From positions 1 through 64,000 of the forward strand of contig SVOH01000010.1 of assembly GCA_015066515.1 (NCBI GenBank): a DNA stretch of 64,000 nucleotides, in the 5' to 3' direction. Source of the stretch: Oscillospiraceae bacterium. GTDB taxonomy: Bacteria; Bacillota; Clostridia; Oscillospirales; Acutalibacteraceae. The notes beneath the pieces were generated by a model. That model worked only from the letters and a program-made list of their open reading frames with translations. It made no database searches and was not told where the DNA came from. The position numbers and the translations under genes are program-made. Shown one piece after another: positions 28,842 to 59,257 of the stretch (within the stretch, counting starts at the first letter, position 1; each line of letters begins with the position of its first letter).

Positions 28842-28943
28842 GTCAGCGGGATGCGACAGCAAAACCGCAGATTTTGAAAAATCCTTCGTTTGTGTGACAA
28901 CTCCCCGTTCACACAACACTTAACGCTATGCCGTCTACTCTGA
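28842..28943 (-). promoter_or_regulatory. THF riboswitch
   Basis: The minus-strand sequence carries the tetrahydrofolate aptamer pattern: AGAGTAGAC near the 5' end, GCGTTAAGTG, a GTGTGTGAA...TCACACA helix, AACGAAGG, a short variable hairpin and CGCATCCCGCT at the 3' end. It lies directly upstream of folT with the expression hairpin after it. Folate compounds should repress FolT production. Confidence 0.85.
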
Positions 28944-28957
28944 AATATTTTGATTAT

Positions 28958-35038: not shown

Positions 35039-35053
35039 TTTGAGGGGTGCTTT

Positions 35054-38178: not shown

Positions 38179-38207
38179 TTGATTTTTGTCAAGTTTTGTT
38201 ATATAAT
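38179..38207 (+). promoter_or_regulatory. Promoter for the lipoprotein and probably the VWA-tubulin operon
   Basis: TTGATT (38179-38184) and TATAAT (38202-38207) with 17-base spacing. No terminator or second clear promoter lies between the lipoprotein and the VWA gene. Confidence 0.6.
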
Positions 38208-38279: not shown

Positions 38280-38618
38280 ATGTTTAAAAAAGGGTTAAAG
38301 AGCATCGCAATTGTGCTTTTAGTATTTGTGATGTTGTTCTCAATGGTAGCGTGCGGTAACAAGCTAAGCGGCACATACACCAACTCGGAAGGGCTTGTTA
38401 AATTAAGCTACACATTTAAGGAAGACAATATTGTAGAGACCAACGCATTGGGTATTGATCTTAATTGGGATGGTCTAAAAATTGAGTACGAAATTGAAAA
38501 GGGTAAAATTACATTTACTTATAGCGTAGCAGGACTCAGCTACGATAAAGAATGCGACTTCGAAAAGAAGGGTAACTCTATATTTATTGACGGCAAAGAA
38601 TTTATTAAAGAAAAGTAA
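38280..38618 (+). CDS. Small lipoprotein
   Basis: A 112-residue lipoprotein: signal peptide with lipobox FSMVACGN (Cys about 23) and a beta-rich domain of about 85 residues (KLSGTYTNSEG, LSYTF, KITFTYSV, FIDGKEF). The pattern of GTY-start and paired strands is common to small Clostridia lipoproteins of unknown role. GGAGGAG precedes the ATG. It ends 36 bases before the VWA gene, so it may be the first gene of that operon. Confidence 0.7.
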   Translation: MFKKGLKSIAIVLLVFVMLFSMVACGNKLSGTYTNSEGLVKLSYTFKEDNIVETNALGIDLNWDGLKIEYEIEKGKITFTYSVAGLSYDKECDFEKKGNSIFIDGKEFIKEK

Positions 38619-38654
38619 TATATATTCTTTTGAATGTAGAGAGGAGATGATGGT

Positions 38655-41204
38655 GTGAAAAAATGTATGAGTGTGCTCCTCGCGGTTTGCTTGCTGGTAT
38701 CGTGCGTATTGGTTGGTGCCCCTGTGGTGCACGCTGCAAAAAAGGAAGCACCTAAAAGAGCGATAGCAATAGTATTTGATAACTCGGGTTCAATGTATCT
38801 TGACAAAAAGCAAGACTGGTGCCGAGCAACCTACGCTATGGAGGTTTTTGCCTCAATGCTCAACAAGGGTGACACCCTTACCATTTACCCGATGTGGCCA
38901 ATTGAGGTTGAGGGTAAAACCTATACAATGGACAGTCCGTTCCAAATAACCGACGCATCGCAATCGGTAAAAATTCGTGAGATATATTCACCAGAGGCAA
39001 AGGGAACTCCGATAGATACCATTGATTGCGCATCAAACGGCTTAAAGGCTGCAACAGCAGACGAAAAGTATATGATTGTACTTACCGACGGTGATTCTTT
39101 TTACTTGAACGGCGCCGATCTAAAGGGTAAGACAAAGGGGGAACTTGACAAACGCTTTAAGGCGTTGGCGGGCCCCGATATGACGGTAATGTATTTGGGT
39201 GTTGGTAAACAGACTGTAATGCCCGACACTGCTGAGTCAGATTATTTTGTTAAAAAGCACGCAAAAGACAGTGCAAATGTTTTATCATCACTGACCGAGA
39301 TGTGTAATAAAATATTTGGCCGTGATTCACTGCCCCAAAAACGCATCAACGGTAATACCATTGACTTTGATATTTCAATGAGCAAGGTAATCGTTTTTGT
39401 TCAGGGTGAAAACATCGCAGATCTAAAGGTTACCGGTGCTAAAGGTGAAATGGGCACTAAGGCGGGTTCTACTGCAACCAAGTACAGCACGAAAGGTACA
39501 GGTCGATGTGAATCGGTACCTGACACTTCTTTACAGGGTATGATGGTTACTTATACCGATTGTGCGTCAGGGCAGTATACAATCAATCACTCGGGTAAAG
39601 CAACCAGTATAGAGGTTTATTACGAGCCCGATGCCGATCTTGATTTTGTATTTACCGATGCCGACGACAATGACGTAGACCCCAAAGAGCTTTATGAAGG
39701 TGACTATAAGGTTGCTTTTGGTATGAAGGACGCTAAAACAGGTCAGCTTATTGAATCAGACCTGCTTGGCAAACCGAAATATGAGGGCAGTTACTTTATA
39801 AATGGTGAAGAACATAAAATAAATGCCGAGGGCTTTAGCGGTGAGGTACCGATAAGTCTTAAGATGGACGATACCTTTGAAGCAAAGCTTACAGCCACCT
39901 ATCTTAGTGACTACACCATCTCAAAGGATTCTACCGATTTTGGTTGGCCCGAGGGCGGTATCAAGGTAGCGGCAATGCCTGCAGGTTTGTTAAAGCTTGA
40001 AATTACAGGCGGCGAAAGAGTGTATTCGCTTCAGACCCTCGAACAAGGACAGCCCTACATTGCCAAGGTTTATTATCAAGGCGCACAGCTTACCGGTAAA
40101 GAGCTTGAAAAGGTAAAGCTGTCTTGGGACGATAACACAACCCACGCCAAGATAGAATCAACCTTTAAAGACGACCATTACGAATTAAAGCTTGGTTATA
40201 AAAATCCGGAATCTAAAAAAGATACCGTGTGCGGCAAATGTAAGGTTGCAATAAATGCGGCTTACGCGGCCCCCGGTAGTGATGAGGCAACTGCAAAGAG
40301 AACGCTTACCTATCACATCGATAGCGACGAAGCCACCTTTAAGATGGATCTTACCGCTCAACAGGATTACATCGTAATCAAAGAACTCGATAGTAGCGAG
40401 CCAATTATTGCTAAGCTTAAGGTAAACGGTAATCCGCTCACACCAGAAGAATTTGCAAGAGTGAAGCTTGAAGTAAAGTGTGACAAAATTAAATACACAC
40501 TTACACCAAACGAAAGCGATTCCTCTTATTCTATAAAGCTTGGTGCTACTAAGGGTATTGCCGAAGGTAAATATCCAATCGAGGTAAAAGCGATTTACAC
40601 TGATGCCGTAGGCCGACCAAGCGAGGTAAATGGCGGAGTGGTTGTAACACTTAGCAACACACCACTATGGCTTAAGTGGTTAATAGTGATTAGCTTACTT
40701 ATCATACTGTTTGTTATCATTTGGATGATACTTCATATTAGAGTGTTGCCAAAGAAAATCAAACCAATAGATGCAAGCATGAATTTCTATGGTGAAGATG
40801 TAACTCAAGACACCAAATTTAATATAAACGCAAGCAGAGGAACACGAACAGGCACGATGACTGTAAGTAGCGAATATGGCGGAACTAAGGCAAGCGTTAC
40901 AATGGTGATCAAGCCCGGTAAAGAAAGTTACCTATATAAGCCTCAGAAAAAACGCAGCATAGAGGTTGTTAAAGATTCTGTTAGAAAAATCGGATTGGCA
41001 ACAGTACAAAATGCTGATATAGGTACGACAGGATATGTATTTGATGAGGATAAGGACAATTTGATTCCTGCAATGGAGTCCAATAATAATTTTGTTTTAA
41101 GGCAGGGTAATGAAATAAGTTTTTCGGGACTTATGCCTGACGAACTTACCGGTAGAGATAGAGATTTTTCTACGAGCATAAAATTAAATTTTGTTAAAAG
41201 ATAA
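38655..41204 (+). CDS. Membrane-anchored VWA-domain protein
   Basis: An 849-residue protein. Signal peptide (about 1-27), extracellular VWA domain (about 35-225) with an intact MIDAS: DNSGSM (42-47), Thr in GTPID and Asp in LTDGD. Then several beta-sandwich domains (about 230-665), one membrane helix (about 671-698) and a cytoplasmic domain of about 150 residues rich in Thr/Lys. It is suited to bind a ligand outside and pass a signal or force inside. The start is GTG at 38655; GAGGAG lies 8 bases upstream and ATGs inside it lead to a stop. The tubulin-like gene follows after 23 bases. Confidence 0.8.
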   Translation: MKKCMSVLLAVCLLVSCVLVGAPVVHAAKKEAPKRAIAIVFDNSGSMYLDKKQDWCRATYAMEVFASMLNKGDTLTIYPMWPIEVEGKTYTMDSPFQITDASQSVKIREIYSPEAKGTPIDTIDCASNGLKAATADEKYMIVLTDGDSFYLNGADLKGKTKGELDKRFKALAGPDMTVMYLGVGKQTVMPDTAESDYFVKKHAKDSANVLSSLTEMCNKIFGRDSLPQKRINGNTIDFDISMSKVIVFVQGENIADLKVTGAKGEMGTKAGSTATKYSTKGTGRCESVPDTSLQGMMVTYTDCASGQYTINHSGKATSIEVYYEPDADLDFVFTDADDNDVDPKELYEGDYKVAFGMKDAKTGQLIESDLLGKPKYEGSYFINGEEHKINAEGFSGEVPISLKMDDTFEAKLTATYLSDYTISKDSTDFGWPEGGIKVAAMPAGLLKLEITGGERVYSLQTLEQGQPYIAKVYYQGAQLTGKELEKVKLSWDDNTTHAKIESTFKDDHYELKLGYKNPESKKDTVCGKCKVAINAAYAAPGSDEATAKRTLTYHIDSDEATFKMDLTAQQDYIVIKELDSSEPIIAKLKVNGNPLTPEEFARVKLEVKCDKIKYTLTPNESDSSYSIKLGATKGIAEGKYPIEVKAIYTDAVGRPSEVNGGVVVTLSNTPLWLKWLIVISLLIILFVIIWMILHIRVLPKKIKPIDASMNFYGEDVTQDTKFNINASRGTRTGTMTVSSEYGGTKASVTMVIKPGKESYLYKPQKKRSIEVVKDSVRKIGLATVQNADIGTTGYVFDEDKDNLIPAMESNNNFVLRQGNEISFSGLMPDELTGRDRDFSTSIKLNFVKR

Positions 41205-41227
41205 TTTAAAAGAGGAGATATAAAATT

Positions 41228-44200
41228 ATGAGCAACAATTCAGAAAAATTAAAGCCAAATGAAGTCGTAGCCCCAACCCTATTTATAGGCGTAGGTGGTA
41301 CAGGTTGTAAAATCGTTAAAAAGGTAGCCGATAAATGCTTGCCACAGGAAAAAGAGAACATAAATTTCTTGTGTCTTGATACCAACGTAAACGACCTTTC
41401 TGACATTGCAAACGGCAAGTCAAAGATTTACTGGGTTCAGACCTCTAACACTCAGACAGTAGGTAGTTACCTCGATTACGACGAGGAAGCTCGTAAAAAG
41501 TGGTTCCCAAAGAACGCAGTTATGTATGATAAAACCGTATCTGAGGGTGCAGGTCAGGTTCGTGCTATTTCTCGTTTGGCACTTAACGCTACTATCAAAA
41601 CCGGTAAAATTCGTCCGCTTTACGATGCAATTGATGATCTCTTCCGCAAGACTGGTAAAGAGATGAAGCAGGCAATGCGTGTCGTAATTGCATCTACTGC
41701 ATCTGGCGGTACAGGTTCTGGTATTATCTTGCCACTTACCATGTTTATCCGTGATTACGTTAAAGAAAAATATCCCAACACAAGCTTGATTGTTCGTTCA
41801 CTTATATTGCTCCCTGAAGTGCTTGATAGCGTTATCGACTCTCAGACTGAACGTGATAGCCAGGCTCGTAATGCGTATGCAACAATCAAAGAGATCAACG
41901 CATTCATGATGAAGGGTTCAGGCTTTATTGACCTTGACGAAGACCTTAAGCAGTTTAGCGATATGCACGTTAACGTATCTATCGCTGGTTCTGATAATCA
42001 AAAATCATTAGCATTGCTTCCTATGGACTTCTGCTTCCTTATGGACGGACAGGACGCTGAAGACAGCACAATGATTAGTATTGGTCAGTATGTTGAACAG
42101 GCTGCTCAGGCACTTTATGAGCAGAATATTGGTCCTATGCAGAAAAAGGCGTTTTCTGTAGAGGATAACATTATTAAAGAAATGACCAAGCCCGGCAATT
42201 ATGGTCGTAACCGTTTTGGTGGTATTGGTGCAGGCGTTATTAGATATCCTTATGAGAATGTTGTAGACTACGTATCTTATGACCTTGCTATGGATAGTAT
42301 TGGCGGCGAGGGCGATGCAACCAAGTGGACCAAGTATGATAACGCAATAAAGAAATACAAAGCTGAGCAGAAAAAGCTTGGTGTTCCTATGTCTACATGG
42401 GATTCTGACGGCAAGGTTTATTGCGATACTATGATCGCTGCAAAGGATCCGTTCTCGAAAGACCTTATTAACACATATGAACTCGAAGATCTTGATTCAA
42501 GAATTAAATTATTTAAAAACAGCTTTGAGGAAGAGGCATACAGAGTTGTAACAAAAGATCCTCAATTCACTTCTGCTTATAACGCAGCAAAACGTTGGTC
42601 CGGCAATCCTGGCTTTGGCGAGGGCGAGAATAAGATCTCTGACGCGGTTAACGCTTTGAACAGATATAGCAAGAGCGTATTGGCAAAGAGCAAAGACGGC
42701 AACCCAATTGTAGAAAATATTGTGGGCCGTTGGGCAGAAGCTTTGTTTACAAACGAACAAAAGACAATTTCTATAAAGGATAAGTATAGTATTGAAAGCT
42801 TGCTTAGAAACGCACAGGGCGAAATTTTACATCCTTGCGCAGTTCGTTATGTTCTTTACAAACTTATAGAAACATTCGAAGCTGGTGCAACATCAAAAGC
42901 ACACTTGCAGGCAGCAGAGCGTATAAATAATTTTAAGGCAAGAGAATATTCATTCAAGTTTAAGAAAGGTCCTGTTATTGGTATTGATGCTTTGGGCGAA
43001 CTTGCCGATAGAGAGCCAACCTTTATGGACAAACTTAAGGGATATAGCAAGCTTAACGACGAGGCTAACAATGATGTTCCTGCATACTTTAAAGCACTGG
43101 AAAACTATTGCAAGATGCTTGCAGCACACGCGGCTTATGCTAAGGCACTTGAGTATACAAGGGCGTTTGCTGAGCAGTTTGAAAACTTCTTTAGCACCTT
43201 CGTATATAAGGTTAAAGATCTTAGCCGCAAAAAGATTGATTTGATTGATGCATTGAAGTATAAGAAGGGCGATTCTTTTGTAAATATTTGTGCAACAGAA
43301 GAACTTTTGAACGAGCTCAGTAAGTTCTCATTACAAAAGGCGCAAAAAGAAACTACATTGCTTAATTCTACAATTAACGGCAATATCTTTGATGCAGTTA
43401 AAAACAACGCTATCTTTAAAATCGAGGTTGATAATGCGGGCGGCGGATATATTGAAGAAGATCGTCGTAAGGATATCTTTGATGATATTCTTATGGGTTA
43501 CTTCCGCGATAGCGTTAAGGAAAGATGCGACGATATAGATAAGGATATTATCGGTGCTATTGAGCTTGAGCAGCGTCTTAAAGAACGTATTCGTTTGCGC
43601 AGTGAAAACAATGGAGATACTCAGGTATTCGAAAGCGTATCTACCGAAGATGCCAAGAGACATATTCTTGAAGTTGTTGCAATGGGTGAGCGTATTGCGG
43701 CTCCTTCGGTACAACGTGTAACCAATGAAGAACCACGTGAAATCAAGGTTTGTGCATATAATAAGATTCTTCTTGACAACCGTAAGTTCCGCGTTAAAGA
43801 CCTTATGCCAAACGGTGAGGCTGTAGATACTGTTTCTAAGTATGAGATTCACTTCTACAATGCGCTTTACAACCTTACACCAAACAAGCTTAAGAAGTTT
43901 GCTGCCGCATTTGAAACCGAGACCGGTAAGAAGCAGGCAGGTACATACCATAAGGCATATACCGAGTATTCACGTCTTATCGGACCTGACTCTACCAAGA
44001 ACGCAGCTATTTCTACCCACATTGACAAGAGCTGGGATTCTATCAAGAGCATGCCAGAGCTTGACTTTAACTATCAGGATCTTGTTATCAAAAAGATTCA
44101 CAAGTCGTTTATCTACGGACTTATCCACAACGCTATTCAGCAGCGTCCGCTTTCTGCAGTTGCAAACGGCAAGAAGGTATTCTTGTATCGTGACTCTGAC

Positions 44201-44956
44201 AACCGCGACGTTGAGTTGCAGGTTCCAAACGGTACCTTGTGTGATGAATTCTACGAAATTCTTGATGCTTTGTATGTAAACTCCAAGGTTGTTGAAGATA
44301 TTAGTCTTATCAAGAACCGCAAGAGAGCTCTTAGTGAATCTAAAAACTGCAACTATGAAAGCACCGAGTTCTTTAAGGATATGGCAAACTTCAATCTCTT
44401 GAAGATTATCGGCGGTGTAAATGCAGCAGATGTAGAAGAACACAATACCTATGACGGCACACAAAAAGGCCTCGAAAATTTAAGAGACGAGTTGCGTGAA
44501 AATAAGTTAGAACGTAGCAAAAACCATGACGGAAATTGGGAAGAGCTTGCTTCGGCATCTGACAGCAGCAAAAAGTACGTAGAGAATGCAACCAGCTTGT
44601 TTGCTATTCCACTTATGTACTACTGCACATTGCCAAATTCCGGTCGTTATGTGTCTGAAATTACCGCTATGGTTGAGGCTGTTATCGATGTATTCCGTGA
44701 AGAATATACCAAGTGGGAAAAACCAGAGGACGTTAAATTTGTGCTTTGCACACGTTTGACCGATGAGCTTAACCTACTTAAAAAGAACTATAGCTTCTAT
44801 GAAAAACACCTACGTGCTCCTGCAGCAAGTGAAAATATGGTAATTGATATTATCCAGAGAAAGATAAGAGACGTTATTCTTTCTGCTCCGGAGCCAGAAG
44901 ATTACGAAGCATTGCTTGATAAGGTTGCAAAAGAATTTAAAGACAGCGAAAACTAA
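41228..44956 (+). CDS. Tubulin/FtsZ-like GTPase (Tubulin_2 type)
   Basis: A 1242-residue protein with an N-terminal tubulin-fold GTPase domain. GVGGTGCKIV (21-30) is the first nucleotide loop and SGGTGSG (159-165) is the tubulin signature, with the LILLPEVLDS segment after it. The remaining 800 residues are mostly helical and not recognised. Similar large tubulin-like proteins (FtsZ-like families noted by Makarova and Koonin) occur next to VWA proteins and membrane proteins and were proposed to remodel membranes. No signal peptide or membrane helix, so cytoplasmic. It is flanked by a VWA gene (23 bases) and a membrane-protein gene (27 bases). AGAGGAG precedes the ATG. Confidence 0.8.
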   Translation: MSNNSEKLKPNEVVAPTLFIGVGGTGCKIVKKVADKCLPQEKENINFLCLDTNVNDLSDIANGKSKIYWVQTSNTQTVGSYLDYDEEARKKWFPKNAVMYDKTVSEGAGQVRAISRLALNATIKTGKIRPLYDAIDDLFRKTGKEMKQAMRVVIASTASGGTGSGIILPLTMFIRDYVKEKYPNTSLIVRSLILLPEVLDSVIDSQTERDSQARNAYATIKEINAFMMKGSGFIDLDEDLKQFSDMHVNVSIAGSDNQKSLALLPMDFCFLMDGQDAEDSTMISIGQYVEQAAQALYEQNIGPMQKKAFSVEDNIIKEMTKPGNYGRNRFGGIGAGVIRYPYENVVDYVSYDLAMDSIGGEGDATKWTKYDNAIKKYKAEQKKLGVPMSTWDSDGKVYCDTMIAAKDPFSKDLINTYELEDLDSRIKLFKNSFEEEAYRVVTKDPQFTSAYNAAKRWSGNPGFGEGENKISDAVNALNRYSKSVLAKSKDGNPIVENIVGRWAEALFTNEQKTISIKDKYSIESLLRNAQGEILHPCAVRYVLYKLIETFEAGATSKAHLQAAERINNFKAREYSFKFKKGPVIGIDALGELADREPTFMDKLKGYSKLNDEANNDVPAYFKALENYCKMLAAHAAYAKALEYTRAFAEQFENFFSTFVYKVKDLSRKKIDLIDALKYKKGDSFVNICATEELLNELSKFSLQKAQKETTLLNSTINGNIFDAVKNNAIFKIEVDNAGGGYIEEDRRKDIFDDILMGYFRDSVKERCDDIDKDIIGAIELEQRLKERIRLRSENNGDTQVFESVSTEDAKRHILEVVAMGERIAAPSVQRVTNEEPREIKVCAYNKILLDNRKFRVKDLMPNGEAVDTVSKYEIHFYNALYNLTPNKLKKFAAAFETETGKKQAGTYHKAYTEYSRLIGPDSTKNAAISTHIDKSWDSIKSMPELDFNYQDLVIKKIHKSFIYGLIHNAIQQRPLSAVANGKKVFLYRDSDNRDVELQVPNGTLCDEFYEILDALYVNSKVVEDISLIKNRKRALSESKNCNYESTEFFKDMANFNLLKIIGGVNAADVEEHNTYDGTQKGLENLRDELRENKLERSKNHDGNWEELASASDSSKKYVENATSLFAIPLMYYCTLPNSGRYVSEITAMVEAVIDVFREEYTKWEKPEDVKFVLCTRLTDELNLLKKNYSFYEKHLRAPAASENMVIDIIQRKIRDVILSAPEPEDYEALLDKVAKEFKDSEN

Positions 44957-44983
44957 TACTAAACAGAAACGGAGATGAGTGGT

Positions 44984-47077
44984 TTGTTCACAGTTTTAAT
45001 AGCTGAAAAAGAACATATTGATGCCATACGCAAGGAAAACAAATTGTTTTTTGAACCGTTTCTAAAAAGCAAAGAACTAGCATTTTGTTATTGGAATCCT
45101 TCGGGACGGACTCTAGCCGATGCCGTCCCGGAGCTTCTGGACACAGTTGGTAGAAAAAAGCCATGGCGCGCGGTAATTATTAACAACGATTCAAAGGAGT
45201 TTATGAAGACGCGAAACCCCTTTGATACTGTGGATTATAGTGCTGTTAAGGCCTTAGTAGTACCAAATCAGAGGCTAAATAAGGATGAAAAAACCGAAGA
45301 ATGGATATCTAAGTGGAAGGATTACTTTGAATCACTTGCCGTAGCAAAGGAACAGGTGTATAGAAATGCATTAGAGCTTCCCTTGCAAAAGTTGGCAACA
45401 TGGTTGTGCTTTAGACCGGAGGATTTTATACTTAATGAATCGGCTGATAAGCAGACTGTGTTTGATTGGACAAGTGAAATCATTGGTGACAATGAGGTAA
45501 AGCCCAGCACTAGACTTGAGATGTTAGAACGCGAGCAGTACAGGCGTGAGCTACGTATGAAGGAAAATATCCGCAGGGAATTTATGAATGATAAATACCT
45601 CAATATTGCCTATCCTTCAGAGGTTCACTGTATTTCTACAAGAACAACAGAGCACACATTCTTTGATCCGGAGGTTTATTGGAAAATACCTTCAGACAGT
45701 GAATATTCTGCTTTTGCTGACCGCAATATGTATTTTGACAAAATGCGTTTTATGGTGTTTGATCTGCTTTCAGAAACTCACCGTGATTATCGCACAGATT
45801 ACATCAGGTTTTTAGCATCTGTTCTGATTTTTGTCACAAATCCAACACCTATTAGTGCTATGCAGGCAAGACGCTTGTATTTGTTAGAAACCGAAACAGA
45901 CGATACGCCACTATGCACGTTGGTTACCTCTTATGACAAAAAACTATCATCCACCTCAGAAGTTATTGAAAACGAGATGGAAAAAATTCGCAACGACATA
46001 CCGAGTGAATTAACCGATAAGGTTGCCGAAGCGCTCTTTTGCACACCAAAGGACGTAGCGGTTATGCTTGATGAGTCTTGCGATACCGAAAAGGTCTTTG
46101 CTAAGAATAATTTTGGACTGTCTTCTGACTGTCCTGAAGATGAGCATCACAAATGGAATCGTGAATATAACGAATCACAAAAAGAACTGGCTTATATAGT
46201 TAAGCAACAGTCACGCGCGGTAAAGAAAAGTGTTAACCAGACCCATAATGCAAGCGAGGTAATCGATGTTAATATTAATCGTTTAACTCCTTTGCAAATT
46301 GATGATGTAAAGGATTACACCAACAATTCCGAAAATGAAATGGTTGCAGCTATACCGCCCGACTTAACAGACATATCTAAATATACAAAGCGTATGGCAG
46401 AACAGTCTGAAGAAGTTAAAAAGGTAATTTCTCGTCGAATGACCAGAAAAACCACAATCGTATTGTCTGCGGTTTGCTTGGTATTATATTTGATATGTTA
46501 TTTACCGTTTTTCTTTACAAACAACAGTACTCCTACAACGGTATCAACAGCGATAGTATTTACTGCGGCTATGCTCGGCTTGTTAGCGGTGATTATGTTT
46601 GTTACGCTCTTCTTCTTGCGAACAACCATTAAAAAAGCTGTTAAGTCATTTAATGATACTGCAAGAGAAGTTGTTAATGAGATAAATGCTTCATTAAAGC
46701 GTGTGTCAAAATACCTTAGTGCTTTGTGTAATGTTCGCCGTGGTTATTCGGTTCAAAATCATGCCAATGATAATATTGATGAATTTACCAAGGGCTTACA
46801 AATCAGAAAAAAGCATCTTGAAGATATTCGCAGAAGACGCGCACAGCTACGTGAAGATTACGAGGATTATTTTGCCGACAGCACCTATTGTGACGAGACA
46901 ATGTCAAGACCATATGACTATGATTTTGACCAGCAGGTAGAGTACGAATATCCTGCACCGTTCCTCGCAGGTGATATGCGACAAATTGAGTTTATGAATA
47001 ACGGTAATTTTGTAACGGTGCCTTCAAGCTACGTTACAAGAATTTCTGCTAGAATGGAGGGAATATATGAAAAGTGA
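44984..47077 (+). CDS. Two-helix membrane protein of the VWA-tubulin operon
   Basis: About 697 residues. The N-terminal segment (FTVLIAEKEHIDAI..., then WRAVIINND) looks like an alpha/beta domain, possibly receiver- or Rossmann-like, without a clear catalytic residue. A charged helical region follows, then two close membrane helices (about 489-512 and 520-546) and a cytoplasmic coiled-coil tail (IRKKHLEDIRRRRAQLREDY). Function unknown. TTG at 44984 is preferred because GGAG ends 9 bases before it; ATG at 44975 touches the ribosome site. It overlaps the next gene by 11 bases. Confidence 0.65.
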   Translation: MFTVLIAEKEHIDAIRKENKLFFEPFLKSKELAFCYWNPSGRTLADAVPELLDTVGRKKPWRAVIINNDSKEFMKTRNPFDTVDYSAVKALVVPNQRLNKDEKTEEWISKWKDYFESLAVAKEQVYRNALELPLQKLATWLCFRPEDFILNESADKQTVFDWTSEIIGDNEVKPSTRLEMLEREQYRRELRMKENIRREFMNDKYLNIAYPSEVHCISTRTTEHTFFDPEVYWKIPSDSEYSAFADRNMYFDKMRFMVFDLLSETHRDYRTDYIRFLASVLIFVTNPTPISAMQARRLYLLETETDDTPLCTLVTSYDKKLSSTSEVIENEMEKIRNDIPSELTDKVAEALFCTPKDVAVMLDESCDTEKVFAKNNFGLSSDCPEDEHHKWNREYNESQKELAYIVKQQSRAVKKSVNQTHNASEVIDVNINRLTPLQIDDVKDYTNNSENEMVAAIPPDLTDISKYTKRMAEQSEEVKKVISRRMTRKTTIVLSAVCLVLYLICYLPFFFTNNSTPTTVSTAIVFTAAMLGLLAVIMFVTLFFLRTTIKKAVKSFNDTAREVVNEINASLKRVSKYLSALCNVRRGYSVQNHANDNIDEFTKGLQIRKKHLEDIRRRRAQLREDYEDYFADSTYCDETMSRPYDYDFDQQVEYEYPAPFLAGDMRQIEFMNNGNFVTVPSSYVTRISARMEGIYEK

Positions 47078-50000
47078 TATTTTGTTTTTCATAGAGTTAA
47101 TAGTAGCTTTCCTTCCGTTTGTGCTTTTTGCTTTTTTAAATGCTAAAGCAAACGTTAAAAAAGAAATCCGCAACAGGCAATATCCAATGCCTGTTATTGC
47201 GGTTATCTATAGCGCAGTATTGCTTATATTTTTAGATAAATTGGCAGATTTGTTTTTGAATTTGTTCTTAAAGCTTGCCGATTTATTCGAAAAAATTAAT
47301 CTGTCCGTTGTAGGAGATTTCATACTTGATCTATATACCAGTTGGGGCATATTCTTGGTTATGGTTGTTTTTAACACTGCCGCATTACTTATATATATAA
47401 CGGTCAAGAGAATATTAACTGCAATATTTGGTGCAATAAAAATTAAAAAAGATTCTTTTATAGGCTCTGTTGTCGAAGTCTTTTACACATATGATGAAGA
47501 AGACGAGGCGTGGTATATAAAAGAGCATTATGGACAAGCCCGCACGTTTATTAAAACGGCCTATTATGGTAGCTGCTTTGTTTCGGGATTAGCACTTTTA
47601 ATTTCTTGCGCGCTGTGCACCAATTATATGATTAGCGCACCGTTTTATCCGGTTTTTGCGGTAATTATTATTGGTGAAACGGCCTTCCTTATTGACGGTC
47701 TTCGAAAGGATGAAAAGAAATCAAACGTTACGGTGCATACCGATAAATCAAAGCATATAGCTATGTATCCGCTTTTGAGAAAGCCTTTAAAAGCTTTGTT
47801 TGGGGACAAGCTATCTGCAGATGGTACAACTGTAAATAATGGTGTTTTGTCGGGAGGAGCAATTGAGGATATACTTGTTGCTTTAGAACAAACCGGCGAG
47901 CACGTTGGCAAAAACTACGCTGCGTTTATCAGAAAAAAGATGCATAACGGATTAAAACCAAACGTTGACTATGTTCGTTGTGGCTATGATTTGGCGATGG
48001 GCAAGAGCCTACTGTTTAATACACCTTTTTATGATAAGCTTAATCCATACGTTTTTTATGCAATGAACCGTGAGCTTTTAACAGGCGGTAAAGTGCTTAT
48101 TGTTTTGGGCCGCCACGGAGCAGAACAGGATCTACTGCAGTGGTCAGAAAAAGGAATGCAAGAGGTATCTAATATACCGGGCTTATGGAATATTTCGGTT
48201 TTAAACAACGAGAAATGCGATGAGGAAAATCTACCGGATATTGGTATTATCTCTCGTTCGGGTGTTCACAATCTTGATATTCACAAAAAAAATCTTTCTT
48301 TCCTTCGCAAAGTATCTTTTGTGGTGGTCGTAGAACCCTCAAGACTTATTACCACCGCTCAGATCGGTCTTAATCTTTTGATTAAATACTGCGGTAACGA
48401 TCGAGCTATTACATTCTGTTCGGTAGACCGCAACTGCGACGGTCTTGTTGATGCGTTGTCGCACATATTAATGACCAATATTACCGAGGTTTCTGCAACA
48501 GAGTATCCACACGGTATGAGTTCATATATGTACTGGACCGCAGATGAAGATTATTTGCAACATCGTATTTTACCGGGTGTTTCAAGATGCTTGGGTATGG
48601 GTACAGAGCTATCTATGGTCGCTCTTAAAAACCAGGTAAAAAACACCGTGTGGTACGGTGGAGAGGTATTTCCTGTATTGGATGCGCGCTGGATTGCAAA
48701 GCAGTATTACTATGATTTGCTTGAATATGCGCAGCTTCCCACCAATCAGGAAACCTTTGACAGAAGCTTTAAAACATCTTTTAATATGTGTGATGAGCGT
48801 GTAAAGGATTATTCTTACGTTACGGTTGAAGACGACCGAAACAACCTGTTCGAAACACGAAGAAACTTTGCAACCATTGCAGAAAAGCAGGGCTTTGTCA
48901 ATGTAATATCTTCAGAGTATATGCTGCGCGAATATATGGCAAGTAACACCGAATTGTTCACTGTCGATGCAAAGGCAATACCATATATTACAGCCGATTA
49001 TGCACGCACAAAAAGAAATGCAATTTTATCATTGTGCTTGCTGTTATGTGCAGATTCTGTGCTTGAAGAAGCGTTGCACAGACAAATGGTGATGTTAAAC
49101 ATAGACACCAAGGATCCTGTTGCTAAAATATGGGAAGAGATTTGTTTGATTTTTGGTGAGGAATCACACACAGACAAAAAAGGAAATCCAATACTTACCG
49201 TAAAAAATCGCGATGGCGAGACAATTTCTTTTGAAAAAGATGATACAATCATATTTAAAAGAGAATATTACGTTGAAAGCGGTAGATTTGAAAACATTTA
49301 TACAATTGACAACGAGGCCTTTTCTCGTATTATTTTAGACGACCTGCAAAATGCAAGCTATATCGCTGAGCAAGAAAGCAAAGATTTCTACATAGGTACA
49401 GAGCTTAAGGGCCACGTATATCAAAAATATATGCCAGGTCAGTTCTTTACGCTTAACGGTAAGTACTATGAGATGATCTCTACGACCACCAACAATCGTA
49501 TTTTGGTGCGCCGAGCATCTGAGCATATTGGCGGTAGATTGGCATATCGACAGGTTCGAAATTATAAGATTCATCATATAGAAGACGTATCTTCTATGGG
49601 TGCGCTTAAAACTGTTAATAATATTGATATTCATTATCAATTGGCTGATTTTAGTGTAGACACACCGGGCTATTGGAAATTACATGCCTACAACAATTTT
49701 GATGGCGGAGAATTGGTTCATATCAACGGTGTTCCTACAAGAGAGTATCACAAAAAGCACATTCTAAAGTTTGATTTTTCAAAGCTTGGCGATGCATTTA
49801 CTGATTCGGTTAGAATGACATTAACCAATTTGTTAAACGAAACTTTCGTAACGCTTTTTGCCGAGAATCAAGCGTTTATTTCAGCAATTACCCCCGGAAA
49901 TTATGATGCTCCAATCACATATAGTCTCGAACTTGAAGAAAATTCAGAAGCTTCAGAAAAATGTATCTATATCATAGAAGACAGCCAGTTAGATATAGGT

Positions 50001-50933
50001 TTGTTGATTGCTGTAGAGCGAAACATAAATCGTATATTCCAAATTATTTCTGATTATCTTGCATGGAATGAAGAAATGATTGCTGAAAGTTTGCGCGAAC
50101 CCGAGCCGGAAGAACCGGTTAAGGAAGAAACCGAACAACCTACCGAAGAAGCTAAGCCCGAAAAGAAAAATATCTTTAAGAAGGCTTGGGAGTGGGTTAA
50201 GGGACTATTCAAGCGCAAAAAGAAAAAGGGACAGGAAGAACTCGATGTTCCCGATTGCGACTATATGATGATTTATGGCAAACCGCATAAATTGGTAAAA
50301 GGCAAATGGGTTGCATGTTCTCAGGAAGAATTCGATAAAAAGATGAATAAACGTCATCAAATTATTGACGAAAACAAGCAAATTGCTAAAGAAGAACGAG
50401 AAAGAGAGCGTGCAGAAGCTGCAGCAGAAAAAGAGGCGGAAAACAATCCCGAAACCGAAGAACCTGAGGTGCAGGTCGAAGTCGGTGACGAGATGGTAGA
50501 TGATATTACCGAAGAAACTTCAGAAGATGTTACAGAGGATTCTACCAATGACGGTGTCGAAGAAGCTACAGCCGAAGAGGTTGAAGAAGCTCCTGCTAAA
50601 ATGAGTTGGTTTGGGCGTATGCGTGCAAATGGCGCTAAGCGCAAGGCTGAAAAAGAAGACAAAAAGAGGGCTAAAAAAGAGGAAAAAGCTGCTCGAAAAG
50701 CCAAAAAGTCAAAACAAGAGCCTGTAGCCGACGAGGAACAAATTCCGGAGTATGTTGAAGAAAACGTAGAACAAGAGGTTTCAGATATTGAACAAGAAAC
50801 TATAGAACAAGAAATCTCTGTTGAGGAATTGACCGATGAAGAACAGCAATCTGAAGCAGGCGTTTCGGAAACTCAAGAAGAGCAAGTCGAGGAAGAGGTG
50901 AATGATGATGAACAAAGCGGACTCCATAGTTGA
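47067..50933 (+). CDS. Giant membrane protein of the VWA-tubulin operon
   Basis: A 1288-residue protein with four to five N-terminal membrane helices (about 5-25, 42-58, 90-118, 165-205), a soluble core (about 215-1010) and a low-complexity tail (about 1010-1288) of alternating basic (FKRKKKKG, AKKEEKAARKAKKSK) and Glu-rich blocks. Within the core, GGKVLIVLGRHG, VSFVVVVEPSRL and AITFCSVDRNCDGLVDAL are spaced like the RecA-fold strands of a DEAD-type helicase, but the Lys and DExx residues are not intact. This is a weak resemblance. AATGGAGGG precedes the ATG. It overlaps genes on both sides. Confidence 0.6.
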   Translation: MKSDILFFIELIVAFLPFVLFAFLNAKANVKKEIRNRQYPMPVIAVIYSAVLLIFLDKLADLFLNLFLKLADLFEKINLSVVGDFILDLYTSWGIFLVMVVFNTAALLIYITVKRILTAIFGAIKIKKDSFIGSVVEVFYTYDEEDEAWYIKEHYGQARTFIKTAYYGSCFVSGLALLISCALCTNYMISAPFYPVFAVIIIGETAFLIDGLRKDEKKSNVTVHTDKSKHIAMYPLLRKPLKALFGDKLSADGTTVNNGVLSGGAIEDILVALEQTGEHVGKNYAAFIRKKMHNGLKPNVDYVRCGYDLAMGKSLLFNTPFYDKLNPYVFYAMNRELLTGGKVLIVLGRHGAEQDLLQWSEKGMQEVSNIPGLWNISVLNNEKCDEENLPDIGIISRSGVHNLDIHKKNLSFLRKVSFVVVVEPSRLITTAQIGLNLLIKYCGNDRAITFCSVDRNCDGLVDALSHILMTNITEVSATEYPHGMSSYMYWTADEDYLQHRILPGVSRCLGMGTELSMVALKNQVKNTVWYGGEVFPVLDARWIAKQYYYDLLEYAQLPTNQETFDRSFKTSFNMCDERVKDYSYVTVEDDRNNLFETRRNFATIAEKQGFVNVISSEYMLREYMASNTELFTVDAKAIPYITADYARTKRNAILSLCLLLCADSVLEEALHRQMVMLNIDTKDPVAKIWEEICLIFGEESHTDKKGNPILTVKNRDGETISFEKDDTIIFKREYYVESGRFENIYTIDNEAFSRIILDDLQNASYIAEQESKDFYIGTELKGHVYQKYMPGQFFTLNGKYYEMISTTTNNRILVRRASEHIGGRLAYRQVRNYKIHHIEDVSSMGALKTVNNIDIHYQLADFSVDTPGYWKLHAYNNFDGGELVHINGVPTREYHKKHILKFDFSKLGDAFTDSVRMTLTNLLNETFVTLFAENQAFISAITPGNYDAPITYSLELEENSEASEKCIYIIEDSQLDIGLLIAVERNINRIFQIISDYLAWNEEMIAESLREPEPEEPVKEETEQPTEEAKPEKKNIFKKAWEWVKGLFKRKKKKGQEELDVPDCDYMMIYGKPHKLVKGKWVACSQEEFDKKMNKRHQIIDENKQIAKEERERERAEAAAEKEAENNPETEEPEVQVEVGDEMVDDITEETSEDVTEDSTNDGVEEATAEEVEEAPAKMSWFGRMRANGAKRKAEKEDKKRAKKEEKAARKAKKSKQEPVADEEQIPEYVEENVEQEVSDIEQETIEQEISVEELTDEEQQSEAGVSETQEEQVEEEVNDDEQSGLHS

Positions 50934-52071
50934 GGAAAACACCGTACAAGAAGAAGTTATTCCTGATGAAGAATTGGCGCAAGAACCAACACAAGAAACT
51001 ACTGTGGAAGAAACTGTTGCATCTGATGAGCCTAATTCAAGCGAAATAGAGACATCAGAATCTGATATACCACAAGAATCAGATTCTGATGCATCTAAAA
51101 CAACAGACTCCGAACATACCGACGACTCTACGCCCGAAACAATCGATGGCGAACCTGATTCTGACGGCGACGAGCCAGCCCAAAATGTCGAGGCCGAGCA
51201 ACCAACAGAGGAAGCTCCTTTTGTGTTGGAAAAGGCTCCGTATCACGAAAGATATTACTTGAAATATCAGGGTGGAAATCGAATAACCGAGCTTGATCTA
51301 ACAGGCACTAGAGCTTTTTTGCAAAGCATTGGTTTTGATGGTGGCGAGCTTAAACAAGCACGCGAAGGCAAGGATTGTGCAGAAAATCTTCGCAATATGG
51401 AGCAAAACAAAGGTAGTCAAACAGTTTGTTCTTATTGCGGTAAAGAAATTTCTGGCATAGACTTTTATAAGCTGCCTGACGGTAGGGTTCGCTGTACAAC
51501 TTGCAGCAACACAATTATCAAAACTAAGGCAGAAATAGAAGAGTTGTTTGAACGAGTTATTGACAATCTTGAAACCTTCTTTGGCGCTACTATCGATGTT
51601 CCAATTTCTATTGAGGTTACAGATGAACGAAAGTTAAAGAAAAAGGTGGGCGTTCCCTTAGGTACTAAAGATGATCAAAGTATATTGATTCTTGGAGTTG
51701 CTATAAGTAAAAAGAAAAAATATAGTATCATTTTAGAAAACGGAGCCCCACGCATTTCGTTAATCGCAACCTTTGCACACGAATTGACTCACATATGGCA
51801 GTACACACACTGGGATAACAACAAGAAATTTAAAGATTGTCCAAAAGATAAGCGCCTTCTAATCTATGAAGGAATGGCAAAGTGGGCAGAAATTCAGTAT
51901 TTATATCTTGTGGGTGAAACAGCAGTAGCAAAGCGTGAAGAGTATATAACAAGAAATCGTGAAGATGAGTATGGCGTTGGATTTTGTATGTATGAGGATG
52001 TATATCCTCTTTCTAGGGAAACCATGACCTGTGAAGAAACTCCTTTCACACCGGATAAGTATCCGATCTAA
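50908..52071 (+). CDS. Zinc-ribbon plus HExxH metallopeptidase
   Basis: About 387 residues. An acidic, disordered N-terminus (about 1-105) precedes a Cys4 zinc ribbon (CSYC at 174-177, CTTC at 196-199) and a gluzincin domain with HELTH (291-295) and EGMAKWAE (Glu321 as third zinc ligand). A LIM-like ribbon joined to an HExxH domain resembles the DA1-like peptidases. Its target may be a protein of the same system. ATG at 50908 is chosen among three consecutive ATGs by spacing to GAGGTG. It overlaps the preceding gene by 26 bases and ends the operon. Confidence 0.7.
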   Translation: MNKADSIVEENTVQEEVIPDEELAQEPTQETTVEETVASDEPNSSEIETSESDIPQESDSDASKTTDSEHTDDSTPETIDGEPDSDGDEPAQNVEAEQPTEEAPFVLEKAPYHERYYLKYQGGNRITELDLTGTRAFLQSIGFDGGELKQAREGKDCAENLRNMEQNKGSQTVCSYCGKEISGIDFYKLPDGRVRCTTCSNTIIKTKAEIEELFERVIDNLETFFGATIDVPISIEVTDERKLKKKVGVPLGTKDDQSILILGVAISKKKKYSIILENGAPRISLIATFAHELTHIWQYTHWDNNKKFKDCPKDKRLLIYEGMAKWAEIQYLYLVGETAVAKREEYITRNREDEYGVGFCMYEDVYPLSRETMTCEETPFTPDKYPI

Positions 52072-52100: not shown

Positions 52101-52146
52101 CTCCCCGTGATAGAACCTAGGGTTTTACCACGGGGAGCAATTTTTT
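52101..52146 (+). terminator. Terminator of the VWA-tubulin operon
   Basis: CTCCCCGTG pairs with CACGGGGAG, followed by CAATTTTTT. Confidence 0.9.
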
Positions 52147-52192: not shown

Positions 52193-52220
52193 TTGACTTT
52201 TTGTTTACTATCAGTATAAT
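52193..52220 (+). promoter_or_regulatory. Promoter of the polyamine-transport operon
   Basis: TTGACT (52193-52198) and TATAAT (52215-52220) with 16-base spacing. Confidence 0.7.
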
Positions 52221-52246
52221 TAGATGAGTGGGATAGTTAATAAAAA

Positions 52247-52263
52247 GTTTAGTAAAACTAAAC
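52247..52263 (+). promoter_or_regulatory. Palindromic operator, likely autoregulatory
   Basis: GTTTAGT-AAA-ACTAAAC, a perfect 7-bp-arm palindrome about 20 bases after the predicted start and 15 bases before the regulator ATG. GTTTACT near 52203 upstream of the -10 box is a near-copy of the half-site. Binding by the XRE regulator encoded next is the simplest reading. Confidence 0.6.
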
Positions 52264-52277
52264 AAGAGGATGAGATT

Positions 52278-52823
52278 ATGCTTATAGAAGAACAAATTGG
52301 TGCTAAAATCAGAAATTTGCGAAACCAAAACGGATTAACACAGGAAGAACTCGCCGACAGAACGGAACTAACCAAGGGATTTATCTCTCAATTAGAGCGT
52401 GGCCTTACCGCACCGTCAGTGTCTACGCTTTCTGATATTGTTGAATGTCTAGGCACAAATCTGTCAGACTTTTTTTATGAAGAGGATGATATTCAGATTG
52501 TGTTTCCAAAAGAAGACTGCTTTGAAAAAGAGGATGAAAATGCCAACATTAAATGGTTGGTAGTAACTGCCCAAAGCAGAAGTATAGAGCCAATTTTGGT
52601 AGAATTAAAGCCAAGGCAGTCTTTGCCTGAGGACAAGCCACATGATGGTGAAGAATTTGGCTATGTTTTAGAGGGCAAAATCAAGATACACTATGGTGAT
52701 AAAGCATATGTAGCAGAGGCAGGGGACTCTTTCATATATCCTGCAAACAGAAGACACCGTATTAGTTCTATGAGCAAAACGGTATCTAAATTTGTGTGGA
52801 TTAGTACACCGCCAAGTTTTTAA
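52278..52823 (+). CDS. XRE-cupin transcriptional regulator
   Basis: A 181-residue regulator with a helix-turn-helix (about 8-62, LRNQNGLTQEELADRTELTK, then ISQLERG) and a cupin domain (about 110-178, HDGEEFGYVLEGK and DSFIYPANRRHR). Regulators of this class precede potABCD operons and respond to polyamines or related small molecules. The ATG at 52278 is used, with AGAGGATGAG upstream; the longer frame would start in the operator region. potA starts 10 bases after its stop. Confidence 0.88.
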   Translation: MLIEEQIGAKIRNLRNQNGLTQEELADRTELTKGFISQLERGLTAPSVSTLSDIVECLGTNLSDFFYEEDDIQIVFPKEDCFEKEDENANIKWLVVTAQSRSIEPILVELKPRQSLPEDKPHDGEEFGYVLEGKIKIHYGDKAYVAEAGDSFIYPANRRHRISSMSKTVSKFVWISTPPSF

Positions 52824-52833
52824 GGAGGACATT

Positions 52834-53907
52834 ATGAAGGATGTAATTTTACAGCTTGATTCTATAAGCAAGTCTTTTGATGAAAAACCGATTTTAGAAA
52901 AATTGAATTTAGAGATAGGAAGAAACGAATTTGTAACTTTGCTTGGTCCTTCGGGCTGCGGCAAATCTACCACTTTACGTATTATTGGTGGATTTGAAAA
53001 ACCTGACGAGGGCAGGGTAATATTTGAAGGAAAAGATATTACAAATCTTTCTCCGGACAAACGCAATGTTAATACTGTTTTCCAAAAGTATTCATTGTTT
53101 CCTAATATGAATGTAGAAGAAAATATTGCCTTTGGTCTAAAGCTTAAGAAAAAAAGCCAGCAATATATAAAAGACAAGATAAATTATGCGTTGAAGCTTG
53201 TAAATATGGATGGTTATGGCCACAGAAAGCCAATGTCGCTTAGCGGTGGCCAGCAGCAGCGTGTTGCTATTGCCAGAGCAATCGTAAACGAGCCGCAGAT
53301 TCTTCTTCTTGATGAGCCGTTGGGCGCATTAGATTTAAAACTTCGTCACGAAATGCAGCGCGAGCTTATTAAAATTAAAAAAGAGGTTGGTATTACCTTT
53401 ATATATGTTACTCACGATCAGGAAGAAGCGCTTACTATGTCAGATCGTATTGTTGTTATGAATAAAGGTATTGTTCAGCAAATAGGAACCTCGAAAAGTA
53501 TTTACGACGAGCCACAAAATGCCTTTGTTGCTGACTTTATAGGCGATAGCAATATCATTGACGGCATTATGAAAGAGGATCGATTGGTACAAATTCAAAA
53601 CGTTTCTATTTCTTGTGTAGATGAGGGCTTTGGTAAAGATGAGTTGGTTGACGTTGTAATAAGGCCCGAGGATTTGGTTATTGTAAAGGAAGAAAAGGGC
53701 TTCCTTAAGGGTATGGTAATAAGCGTTATTTTTAAGGGTGCTTATTATGAAATTAAGGTGCGTGTGGGTAATTATGAGTGGAAGGTGCAAAGTGTAAATC
53801 CTGCACAACCGGGATCGATTGTTGGATTGACCATTTTGCCTGAAAATATCCAAATTATGCACAAGCCTCATTCAGAGGATGCGGAGGTTGCAAAGGAAGA
53901 TGAATAA
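52834..53907 (+). CDS. potA: Spermidine/putrescine ABC transporter ATPase
   Basis: A 357-residue ATPase with Walker A GPSGCGKST (38-46), Q-loop VFQKYSLFP, signature LSGGQQQR (about 135-142), Walker B ILLLDEP, the switch His in THDQ and a C-terminal TOBE domain (about 240-350). It energises polyamine import with PotB and PotC. AAGGAGG lies 5-6 bases before the ATG at 52834. Its last codons overlap the potB start. Confidence 0.92.
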   Translation: MKDVILQLDSISKSFDEKPILEKLNLEIGRNEFVTLLGPSGCGKSTTLRIIGGFEKPDEGRVIFEGKDITNLSPDKRNVNTVFQKYSLFPNMNVEENIAFGLKLKKKSQQYIKDKINYALKLVNMDGYGHRKPMSLSGGQQQRVAIARAIVNEPQILLLDEPLGALDLKLRHEMQRELIKIKKEVGITFIYVTHDQEEALTMSDRIVVMNKGIVQQIGTSKSIYDEPQNAFVADFIGDSNIIDGIMKEDRLVQIQNVSISCVDEGFGKDELVDVVIRPEDLVIVKEEKGFLKGMVISVIFKGAYYEIKVRVGNYEWKVQSVNPAQPGSIVGLTILPENIQIMHKPHSEDAEVAKEDE

Positions 53908-54736
53908 AAAAGAAAGGGCAAACAAGCAAAGTCTGATTTCGTCACCATATATTATATGGGTGATTGGTTTTACTGTATTGCCGCTTTTGGTAATCTTCCG
54001 CTATGCTTTTACCGATTCAAATGGTAATTTTACCTTTAAAAATGTATTTGCCACATTTGATATGATTCATATGAAAGCAATTATCTATTCGCTAGGTATT
54101 GCATTAGGCTGCACGGTTATTTGTGTTTTGCTGTCATATCCTCTTGTTATGGCATTGAGATGTCTTAATTTAAAGAAGCAAAAGTTTACGTTGTTTATAT
54201 TTATTTTACCTATGTGGATGAACTTTATTTTGCGCGTTTTGGCTTGGCAAATGATTTTATCCAACAACGGTATATTAAATTTTGTTCTTACCGGCATCGG
54301 TTTAGAGCCGCTTCGTATTGCAAATACGGGCACTGCACTTATGATAGGTGTTGTGTACGATTATCTTCCGTATATGGTGCTTCCAATATATAATGCTATA
54401 TCAGAGATAGACGAAGATATAATTGAAGCGGCCAAGGACTTGGGCGCAGATGGGTTTACAGTATTTTGTAAAATTATTTTTCCTATGTCACTACCGGGAC
54501 TATTAAGCGGAATAGTTATGGTTTTTGTTCCAACTATGACTTCATTTGTAATATCCGATATTTTAGGTGGCGGCAAGGTGCAATTGATAGGCAATGTTAT
54601 AGAGCAAGAATTTACTAAAGCGGCCAACTGGAATCTTGGTTCCGGACTGTCTGTATCGTTAATGATTTTTGTGCTTATAAGTATGGCATTTACAACCAAA
54701 AATGATAACGAAGGAAAGGGGACTGCTATATGGTAG
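53900..54736 (+). CDS. potB: Spermidine/putrescine ABC transporter permease B
   Basis: A 278-residue permease with six membrane helices and the EAA motif EAAKDLGADGFTVFCKIIFP for contact with PotA. The ATG at 53900 overlaps the potA stop and has AAAGGAAG upstream. It overlaps potC by 7 bases. Confidence 0.9.
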   Translation: MNKKERANKQSLISSPYIIWVIGFTVLPLLVIFRYAFTDSNGNFTFKNVFATFDMIHMKAIIYSLGIALGCTVICVLLSYPLVMALRCLNLKKQKFTLFIFILPMWMNFILRVLAWQMILSNNGILNFVLTGIGLEPLRIANTGTALMIGVVYDYLPYMVLPIYNAISEIDEDIIEAAKDLGADGFTVFCKIIFPMSLPGLLSGIVMVFVPTMTSFVISDILGGGKVQLIGNVIEQEFTKAANWNLGSGLSVSLMIFVLISMAFTTKNDNEGKGTAIW

Positions 54737-55527: not shown

Positions 55528-55528
55528 A

Positions 55529-59207: not shown

Positions 59208-59257
59208 ATATAATGAAAAAATATAGTTTTGAGCACATTAATTGAAGGAGCATATTG

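What the first reader, a model, noticed from the sequence alone, without database searches (positions are those of the whole stretch)
38280..52071. Six-gene VWA-tubulin-membrane-peptidase operon: candidate membrane-associated GTPase machine
One strand carries, nearly without gaps, a lipoprotein, a VWA protein that spans the membrane, a 1242-residue tubulin-like GTPase with both nucleotide loops intact, two large unknown membrane proteins, and a zinc-ribbon HExxH peptidase, closed by one strong terminator. Large tubulin-like proteins next to VWA proteins have been described before as a theme, but the two membrane proteins and the peptidase are not ones I can name. The topology suggests an external VWA sensor linked through membrane proteins to a cytoplasmic polymerising GTPase, with a peptidase as processor or effector.
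Basis: partly seen in the sequence, partly recalled or inferred. Interest (0 to 1): 0.85.

Follow-up and report, generated by a model that had tools for sequence, protein, structure and literature searches.

The report
Clostridial tubulin–VWA–peptidase membrane operon
Gut clostridia carry a strongly conserved gene set that joins a tubulin-like protein, an outward-facing sensor-like protein, two unknown membrane proteins and a zinc peptidase; it is a new variant of a tubulin gene cluster known since 2010 whose job is still unknown, and its neighbours in related bacteria hint at cell signalling or defence.

Summary
Five of the six genes (VWA, Tubulin_2 GTPase, membrane proteins M4 and M5, zinc-ribbon HExxH peptidase) form a conserved unit: of 54 named loci with enough upstream sequence, M4 is present in 54, tubulin and VWA in 53. 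The lipoprotein is not core. M5 and peptidase are one protein in 39 of 56 decidable loci; the window shows a split with overlapping genes that recurs in relatives. The tubulin belongs to Tubulin_2/FtsZl1, whose vWA operons Makarova and Koonin described in 2010. M4 and M5 match no named family. The DO-GTPase of three other clostridial Tubulin_2 operons is absent. The module is patchy. In relatives, not in the window, its flanks are enriched for Castor-like, RyR-like and TIR genes (11, 8, 9 found; 0.10, 0.21, 0.46 expected); the first two names rest on weak Pfam matches. Best reading: a membrane-spanning signalling or conflict device in which a VWA ectodomain and a tubulin-like switch control a cytoplasmic peptidase. 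Function is inferred; no structure could be predicted.

The parts
38280..38618 (+). small lipoprotein (112 aa, signal peptide with lipobox-like VACG); first gene, not part of the conserved core
   Evidence: homologues upstream of VWA in L062 and L017 by phmmer and also L021 by a loose iterated profile
38655..41204 (+). VWA protein: signal-peptide-like start, VWA domain with MIDAS residues, one TM near residue 675-693, C-terminal tail
   Evidence: (E 0.038, below cut-off)
41228..44956 (+). Tubulin_2 (FtsZl1) GTPase, 1242 aa
   Evidence: Pfam PF13809 E 2.1e-52; only PF13809 match in this genome
41288..41305 (+). first glycine loop GVGGTG (residues 21-26)
   Evidence: G21, G23, G24, G26 in 52 of 52
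41705..41722 (+). second glycine loop GGTGSG (residues 160-165)
   Evidence: all six residues in 52 of 52
44975..47077 (+). M4: unknown protein with a TM hairpin (residues 490-545) and large parts on both sides
   Evidence: 2 predicted TM in 59 of 65 rows, a few rows being the same contig twice; upstream of M5 in 66 of 66 loci with room; only sub-threshold Pfam matches
47067..50933 (+). M5: five or six N-terminal TM, conserved core of about 780 residues (47754-50081), then a lysine- and acid-rich linker
   Evidence: no Pfam match over cut-off and no PDB relative
50902..50933 (+). 32-base overlap of the M5 and peptidase genes; peptidase start shortly after GAGGAAGAGG
   Evidence: overlap in the same relative frame in 12 of 13 other split loci that the script printed
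50902..52071 (+). PEP: acidic linker, four-cysteine zinc ribbon (51427-51504), peptidase motif HELTH (51778-51792)
52101..52146 (+). intrinsic terminator
   Evidence: -25.2 kcal/mol, z -6.37

Best explanation
The five core genes make one membrane-spanning complex. The VWA ectodomain faces outside and senses or binds something through its metal site. M4 and M5 anchor and organise the complex on the cytoplasmic face, and the tubulin-like GTPase assembles there as a switchable scaffold. The output is the zinc peptidase carried on a flexible linker behind M5, helped in some relatives by a transglutaminase-like domain or by nearby co-directional Castor-like and RyR-like membrane proteins and TIR proteins. 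The likely purpose is signalling in biological conflict or stress. Shown by sequence: conserved unit, intact motifs, M5-peptidase fusion, linkage to these neighbour genes in relatives; predicted: topology. Inferred: complex formation, polymerisation, peptidase activity, sensing, and the defence role.
For: Gene set kept: M4 54 of 54, TUB 53 of 54, VWA 53 of 54 loci with more than 7.2 kb upstream of M5; TUB found in 8 of the 10 genomes whose M5 locus showed no TUB (nine cut by contig ends, one not). M4-M5 overlap 8 bp at the median, 61 of 61 pairs within 100 bp. M5 and PEP fused in 39, separate in 17 of 56 decidable loci. Transglutaminase-like domain in the peptidase reading frame in 10 of 69 loci, behind the peptidase in the one located. 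Motifs of VWA, TUB, PEP conserved. Flanks of 40 loci (333 kb; genomes 91.8 Mb): Castor-like 11 against 0.10 expected, RyR-like 8 against 0.21, TIR 9 against 0.46. The 14 Castor-like and 11 RyR-like genes in the flanks of the 69 loci all run in the operon's direction. Castor-like matches in 26 of 40 module genomes against 7 of 391 class genomes. Patchy: 5 of 150 family genomes, the window's own included. Phage RyR-domain proteins bind or cleave cADPR signals made by TIR enzymes (PMC13232231, abstract and passages seen), and the contact spacing H..W is present in the 9 neighbours whose C-terminus is complete (read by eye).
Against: The window has no such neighbour and its genome no Castor-like match. 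Among nine split loci nearest the window within the 40 (L015, L020, L021, L022, L025, L027, L028, L062, L073), Castor-like is absent from 7 genomes and only a fragment in one; RyR-like and TIR matches exist in 6 and 7 of the 9 genomes, but in the flank only in L028 and L027. The names are weak: of two Castor-like proteins tested one matched PF06241 below cut-off (E 0.0069) and one nothing; of two RyR-like, one matched PF02026 below cut-off (E 3.9e-5) and one nothing. My pattern for all four RyR contact residues matched 3 of 11, one at another place; its spacing was set too narrow. No defence model matched the six proteins except LeoBC to M4 (E 8.8e-5). The 40 genomes are related and mostly gut MAGs, the class sample is drawn differently, and the Castor-like and RyR-like models were seeded from these flanks, so P values are nominal. 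No assay, no structure.
Confidence: 0.4

Rival explanations
1. Membrane remodelling or vesicle biogenesis, as Makarova and Koonin proposed for FtsZl1 operons: the tubulin-like protein makes filaments that deform the membrane, with VWA, M4 and M5 as anchors and the peptidase as a processing factor.
For: Same tubulin family next to a vWA gene (PMC2875224, Findings section seen); three of the five core proteins have predicted TM segments.
Against: Does not explain the enrichment of Castor-like, RyR-like and TIR genes in the flanks, nor the patchy spread. No known membrane-bending domain appeared in the Pfam scans.
Confidence: 0.25
2. Cell-surface adhesion or colonisation device: the VWA protein is an adhesin held by a cytoplasmic scaffold and trimmed by the peptidase.
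For: VWA with conserved MIDAS residues and a signal-peptide-like start; many of the record titles name gut samples.
Against: The peptidase has no predicted TM or signal and follows the M5 linker, so it is probably inside; an adhesin does not need a GTPase.
Confidence: 0.15
3. A secretion apparatus related to type VII secretion.
For: One locus (L075, the same contig as L011) has an FtsK/SpoIIIE ATPase gene and small helical-looking ORFs downstream.
Against: Noted in one of 69 loci; no secretion ATPase in the core; the one small ORF scanned gave no Pfam match.
Confidence: 0.06

Closest known systems
FtsZl1 (Tubulin_2)-vWA operons, Makarova and Koonin 2010 (PMC2875224; abstract and the whole Findings section seen)
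   Same: N-terminal Tubulin_2 domain with both glycine loops, long C-terminal part, vWA gene beside it, unknown membrane proteins, patchy distribution
   Different: No OmpA-like, kinase or P-loop GTPase match among the six proteins; M4 and M5-PEP are fixed partners here. Their Additional file 6 of lineage-specific families could not be read, so M4 or M5 may be listed there without a function
GAP1-N2 / DO-GTPase conflict systems with tubulin genes, Kaur et al. 2020 (PMC7159879; section 29 and passages seen)
   Same: Firmicute tubulin-domain protein with a membrane-bound, extracellular vWA protein; membrane location
   Different: DO-GTPase in three other clostridial Tubulin_2 operons (L105, L107, L109), none here; one tubulin gene in the genome, not two; in a quick tree of 33 tubulin domains the two kinds separate with SH-aLRT 100, long branches noted
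Thoeris (TIR plus cADPR-responsive effector; recalled, and as told in PMC13232231)
   Same: TIR and RyR-like genes lie in the flanks of some relatives
   Different: No Thoeris model matches the six window proteins; the link is by neighbourhood in relatives only

Membership tests
FtsZl1 / Tubulin_2 | Tubulin_2 domain (PF13809) | tested here: met
   E 2.1e-52, 179 bits against cut-off 27
FtsZl1 / Tubulin_2 | glycine-rich nucleotide loops intact | tested here: met
   kept in 52 of 52 aligned proteins
FtsZl1 / Tubulin_2 | extended coiled coil and helical C-terminal domain | not tested
   the part behind residue 357 has no Pfam match over cut-off; coiled coil not computed
FtsZl1 / Tubulin_2 | vWA gene in the operon | tested here: met
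   53 of 54 loci with enough upstream sequence
FtsZl1 / Tubulin_2 | tubulin fold in three dimensions, GTPase and polymerisation | not testable with these tools
GAP1-N2 / DO-GTPase system | DO-GTPase gene | tested here: not met
   none of the six proteins matches; three other clostridial Tubulin_2 operons do
GAP1-N2 / DO-GTPase system | GAP1 protein | tested here: inconclusive
   no GAP1-type match among the six proteins, but none either in the nine proteins scanned from the DO-GTPase operons, where some ORFs were not scanned
GAP1-N2 / DO-GTPase system | two tubulin genes in Firmicutes | tested here: not met
   one PF13809 match in the genome
Zinc metallopeptidase of the HExxH...E type | HExxH with a downstream acidic residue | tested here: met
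   HExxH 51 of 53, E323 49 of 53 and D in 2 more
Zinc metallopeptidase of the HExxH...E type | peptidase fold and activity | not testable with these tools
   best Pfam match DUF6782 E 0.00024, below cut-off; no structure
Thoeris | TIR signal maker and its effector in the operon | tested here: not met
   no PADLOC match to Thoeris models in the six proteins

The most novel reading that the evidence does not exclude
A tubulin-based membrane sensor that feeds a cyclic ADP-ribose and ion-channel pathway in gut bacteria: the VWA/tubulin/M4/M5-peptidase core detects a surface event and switches TIR enzymes, RyR-domain sensors and Castor/Pollux-like channels, so that tubulin, cADPR-type signals and calcium-type channels, familiar from animals and plants, would work together in one bacterial immune or stress device.
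Probability: 0.15. Interest if true: 0.9.

Novelty: new variant of a known kind. Interest (0 to 1): 0.6.

Why it matters
Tubulin_2 proteins have been in print since 2010, and my searches listed no paper with a tested function. This set gives a nearly fixed partner list with two unnamed protein families, a fused peptidase as a candidate output, and a counted link to Castor-like, RyR-like and TIR genes in relatives. That turns a broad membrane remodelling idea into a few direct experiments, one of them possible in a carrier whose record is not labelled as a MAG (Pseudoflavonifractor sp. An44, L045).

Tried and rejected
Helicase idea: by eye (a recalled likeness) M5 resembled an inactive SF2 helicase with a DUF1998-like end. 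hhalign of the M5 profile against seven local helicase ORFs and one two-row profile gave probabilities of 0.1-0.3%, against 0.1-0.8% for four unrelated proteins. Pfam with 48 members and with a consensus gave no helicase, PDB none. Low power, but the idea has no support and is dropped.

M4 as a SLATT or Leo-type pore: Pfam and NCBIfam matches are below cut-off and lie mostly over the TM hairpin; LeoBC in PADLOC E 8.8e-5. Not claimed.

Sequencing error as cause of the M5/PEP split: judged unlikely, because 12 of the 13 other split loci printed by the script have overlapping genes in the same relative frame; L046 has a gap instead. Four further split loci (L022, L024, L028, L062) were not printed.

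Phage, plasmid or viral carriage: no M5 relative found at those sensitivities.

The 69 loci include near-identical ones (L044, L045). Two of the seven genomes matching M5 (70 positions at 2.8e-5; 62 positions with a stop) I treat as chance. Of 11 genomes over the Tubulin_2 cut-off, G410 is taken as ftsZ from its neighbours. The divergent L013 lies outside the 69.

Full report
Observation. Six ORFs lie on the + strand from 38280 to 52071, with short gaps and two overlaps. The run ends at a strong terminator. A promoter-like match lies upstream (38179-38207), but such matches are as common as in shuffles. The third protein carries Tubulin_2 and is the only such protein found in the genome.

Is it a unit? 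The M5 core, not the tubulin, was used to scan a collection of one genome per species; two short patterns gave 69 confirmed, named loci, so the scan is not exhaustive. With profiles built from the loci and six-frame ORFs, 54 loci have more than 7.2 kb upstream of M5: M4 in 54, TUB in 53, VWA in 53. In the one exception, L071, the genome has the tubulin on contig C6, while the locus shows none beside M5. M4 is upstream in 66 of 66 loci with room. The peptidase is present in the 56 loci where the M5 frame is not cut at the contig end (39 fused, 17 separate); the other 13 are cut within 2 bases of the end. Median gaps are 27 bp VWA-TUB (52 pairs) and 33 bp TUB-M4 (53 pairs), and M4-M5 overlap by 8 bp (61 pairs). 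In the class sample of 391 genomes, 14 match Tubulin_2, 11 over the cut-off, one of them ftsZ by context. Of the remaining ten, five carry M5: the window, G184, G469, G220 (VWA-TUB and M4-M5 on two short contigs) and G215 (divergent M5, no M4 or PEP match); three carry a DO-GTPase operon; G236 has another setting; in G278 the contig ends in the tubulin, after VWA.

The split. In the window, M5 and the peptidase overlap by 32 bases in another frame, with GAGGAAGAGG in front. Of the 13 other split loci printed by the script, 12 overlap by 8-95 bases in the same relative frame (starts are mechanical first start codons). In the M5 tree of 48 rows the splits need four changes: a clade around the window and separate cases elsewhere. 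A gene fission is the simplest account, and the fused form suggests that the two parts act together.

Spread. The module is patchy: tubulin relatives in 5 of 150 family genomes, the window's included, M5 in 5 clear of 391 class genomes. Record titles name Lachnospiraceae, Oscillospiraceae, Erysipelotrichaceae, Peptococcaceae and two Treponema MAGs; the Treponema copies group with Peptococcaceae MAGs. Transfer between phyla is likely; misbinned contigs are not excluded.

Neighbours. Two membrane protein families recur in the flanks: one of about 700 residues that I call Castor-like and one of about 600 that I call RyR-like. The names are weak: one of two Castor-like proteins matched PF06241 (E 0.0069) and one of two RyR-like matched PF02026 (E 3.9e-5), both below cut-off. 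Across 69 loci there are 14 Castor-like and 11 RyR-like genes, in 21 loci, all in the operon's direction; TIR genes in 10 loci, 8 in that direction. For 40 of the 69 loci the whole genomes were searched: 28 Castor-like, 58 RyR-like (several are pieces of one gene) and 127 TIR matches in 91.8 Mb (the script used 126 for TIR). In 333 kb of flank 0.10, 0.21 and 0.46 were expected; 11, 8 and 9 were found. The nine flank TIR genes were found with my own model; I checked that each is also in the PF13676 list. Castor-like matches occur in 26 of 40 module genomes (two by short fragments) against 7 of 391 class genomes, three of them full length and none in a genome where one search found M5. RyR-like background in the class was not searched. 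The samples differ and rows are related, so P values are nominal.

The window itself has no such neighbour, and its genome no Castor-like match. Among nine split loci near it within the 40, Castor-like is missing from seven genomes and a fragment in one, whereas RyR-like and TIR matches exist somewhere in six and seven of the nine. So these partners are optional at best, and for the window's own kind only the five-gene core is supported.

Mechanism. By hydropathy VWA has a signal-peptide-like start and one C-terminal TM; M4 a TM hairpin; M5 five or six TM and a large core; the peptidase with its zinc ribbon follows on a charged linker. This fits a sensor outside, a GTPase scaffold inside, and a tethered peptidase as output. 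RyR-domain phage proteins bind or cut cADPR signals made by TIR enzymes (PMC13232231, a preprint; abstract and passages seen). The H..W spacing of two contact residues is present in the nine RyR-like neighbours with a complete C-terminus, read by eye; a scripted pattern for all four contacts matched three of eleven, one at another place. That is a concrete but untested idea for the relatives that carry these genes.

Comparison with print. The tubulin family and its vWA operons are known (PMC2875224, Findings section seen). The GTPase-centred relatives are known (PMC7159879, section 29 and passages seen). Later work treats Tubulin_2 as a sparse, divergent group (PMC9871819, passages seen). Searches listed no paper on the M4-M5-peptidase set; several listings were capped (one search showed 15 of 121, 10 of 92, 12 of 5,692), the library holds open-licence papers only, and supplements were not readable.

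Verdict. A well-supported, five-gene new variant of a known kind, with function inferred.

Noticed in passing
window 28842-28944, - strand: THF riboswitch, 86.1 bits
   Followed up: no
window 52224-56578, + strand: HTH-cupin regulator followed by ORFs that look like a polyamine-type ABC transporter (read by eye from translations); behind the terminator, with a promoter-like site at 52193-52220
   Followed up: no
window 33607-36895, + strand: VTC domain, DUF4956 and Cthe_2159 proteins in a row
   Followed up: no
window 10106-14461, + strand: 1451-residue protein with a C-terminal dockerin, no other Pfam match at 1e-5; may point to cellulosome-type assembly
   Followed up: no
window 59255-63394, + strand: 1379-residue ORF without a Pfam match at 1e-5
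   Followed up: no
L039 14147-21927: Castor-like, RyR-like, TIR and transglutaminase-like genes in one co-directional run behind the tubulin module
   Followed up: partly
G567 contig C41 38799-43135: RyR-like, Castor-like and TIR matches side by side on one strand, apparently on another contig than the module of that genome (L072); the three may form a unit of their own
   Followed up: no
L013 3-4460 (minus strand): Divergent module whose peptidase region reads RQLTQ in place of HELTH (by eye); a TIR gene lies upstream of VWA
   Followed up: partly
L075 12171-17979: FtsK/SpoIIIE ATPase gene and small ORFs between the module and the Castor-like gene
   Followed up: partly
L012 1-5728: ORFs that read like a type III CRISPR set upstream of the module; judged by eye, not tested
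   Followed up: no
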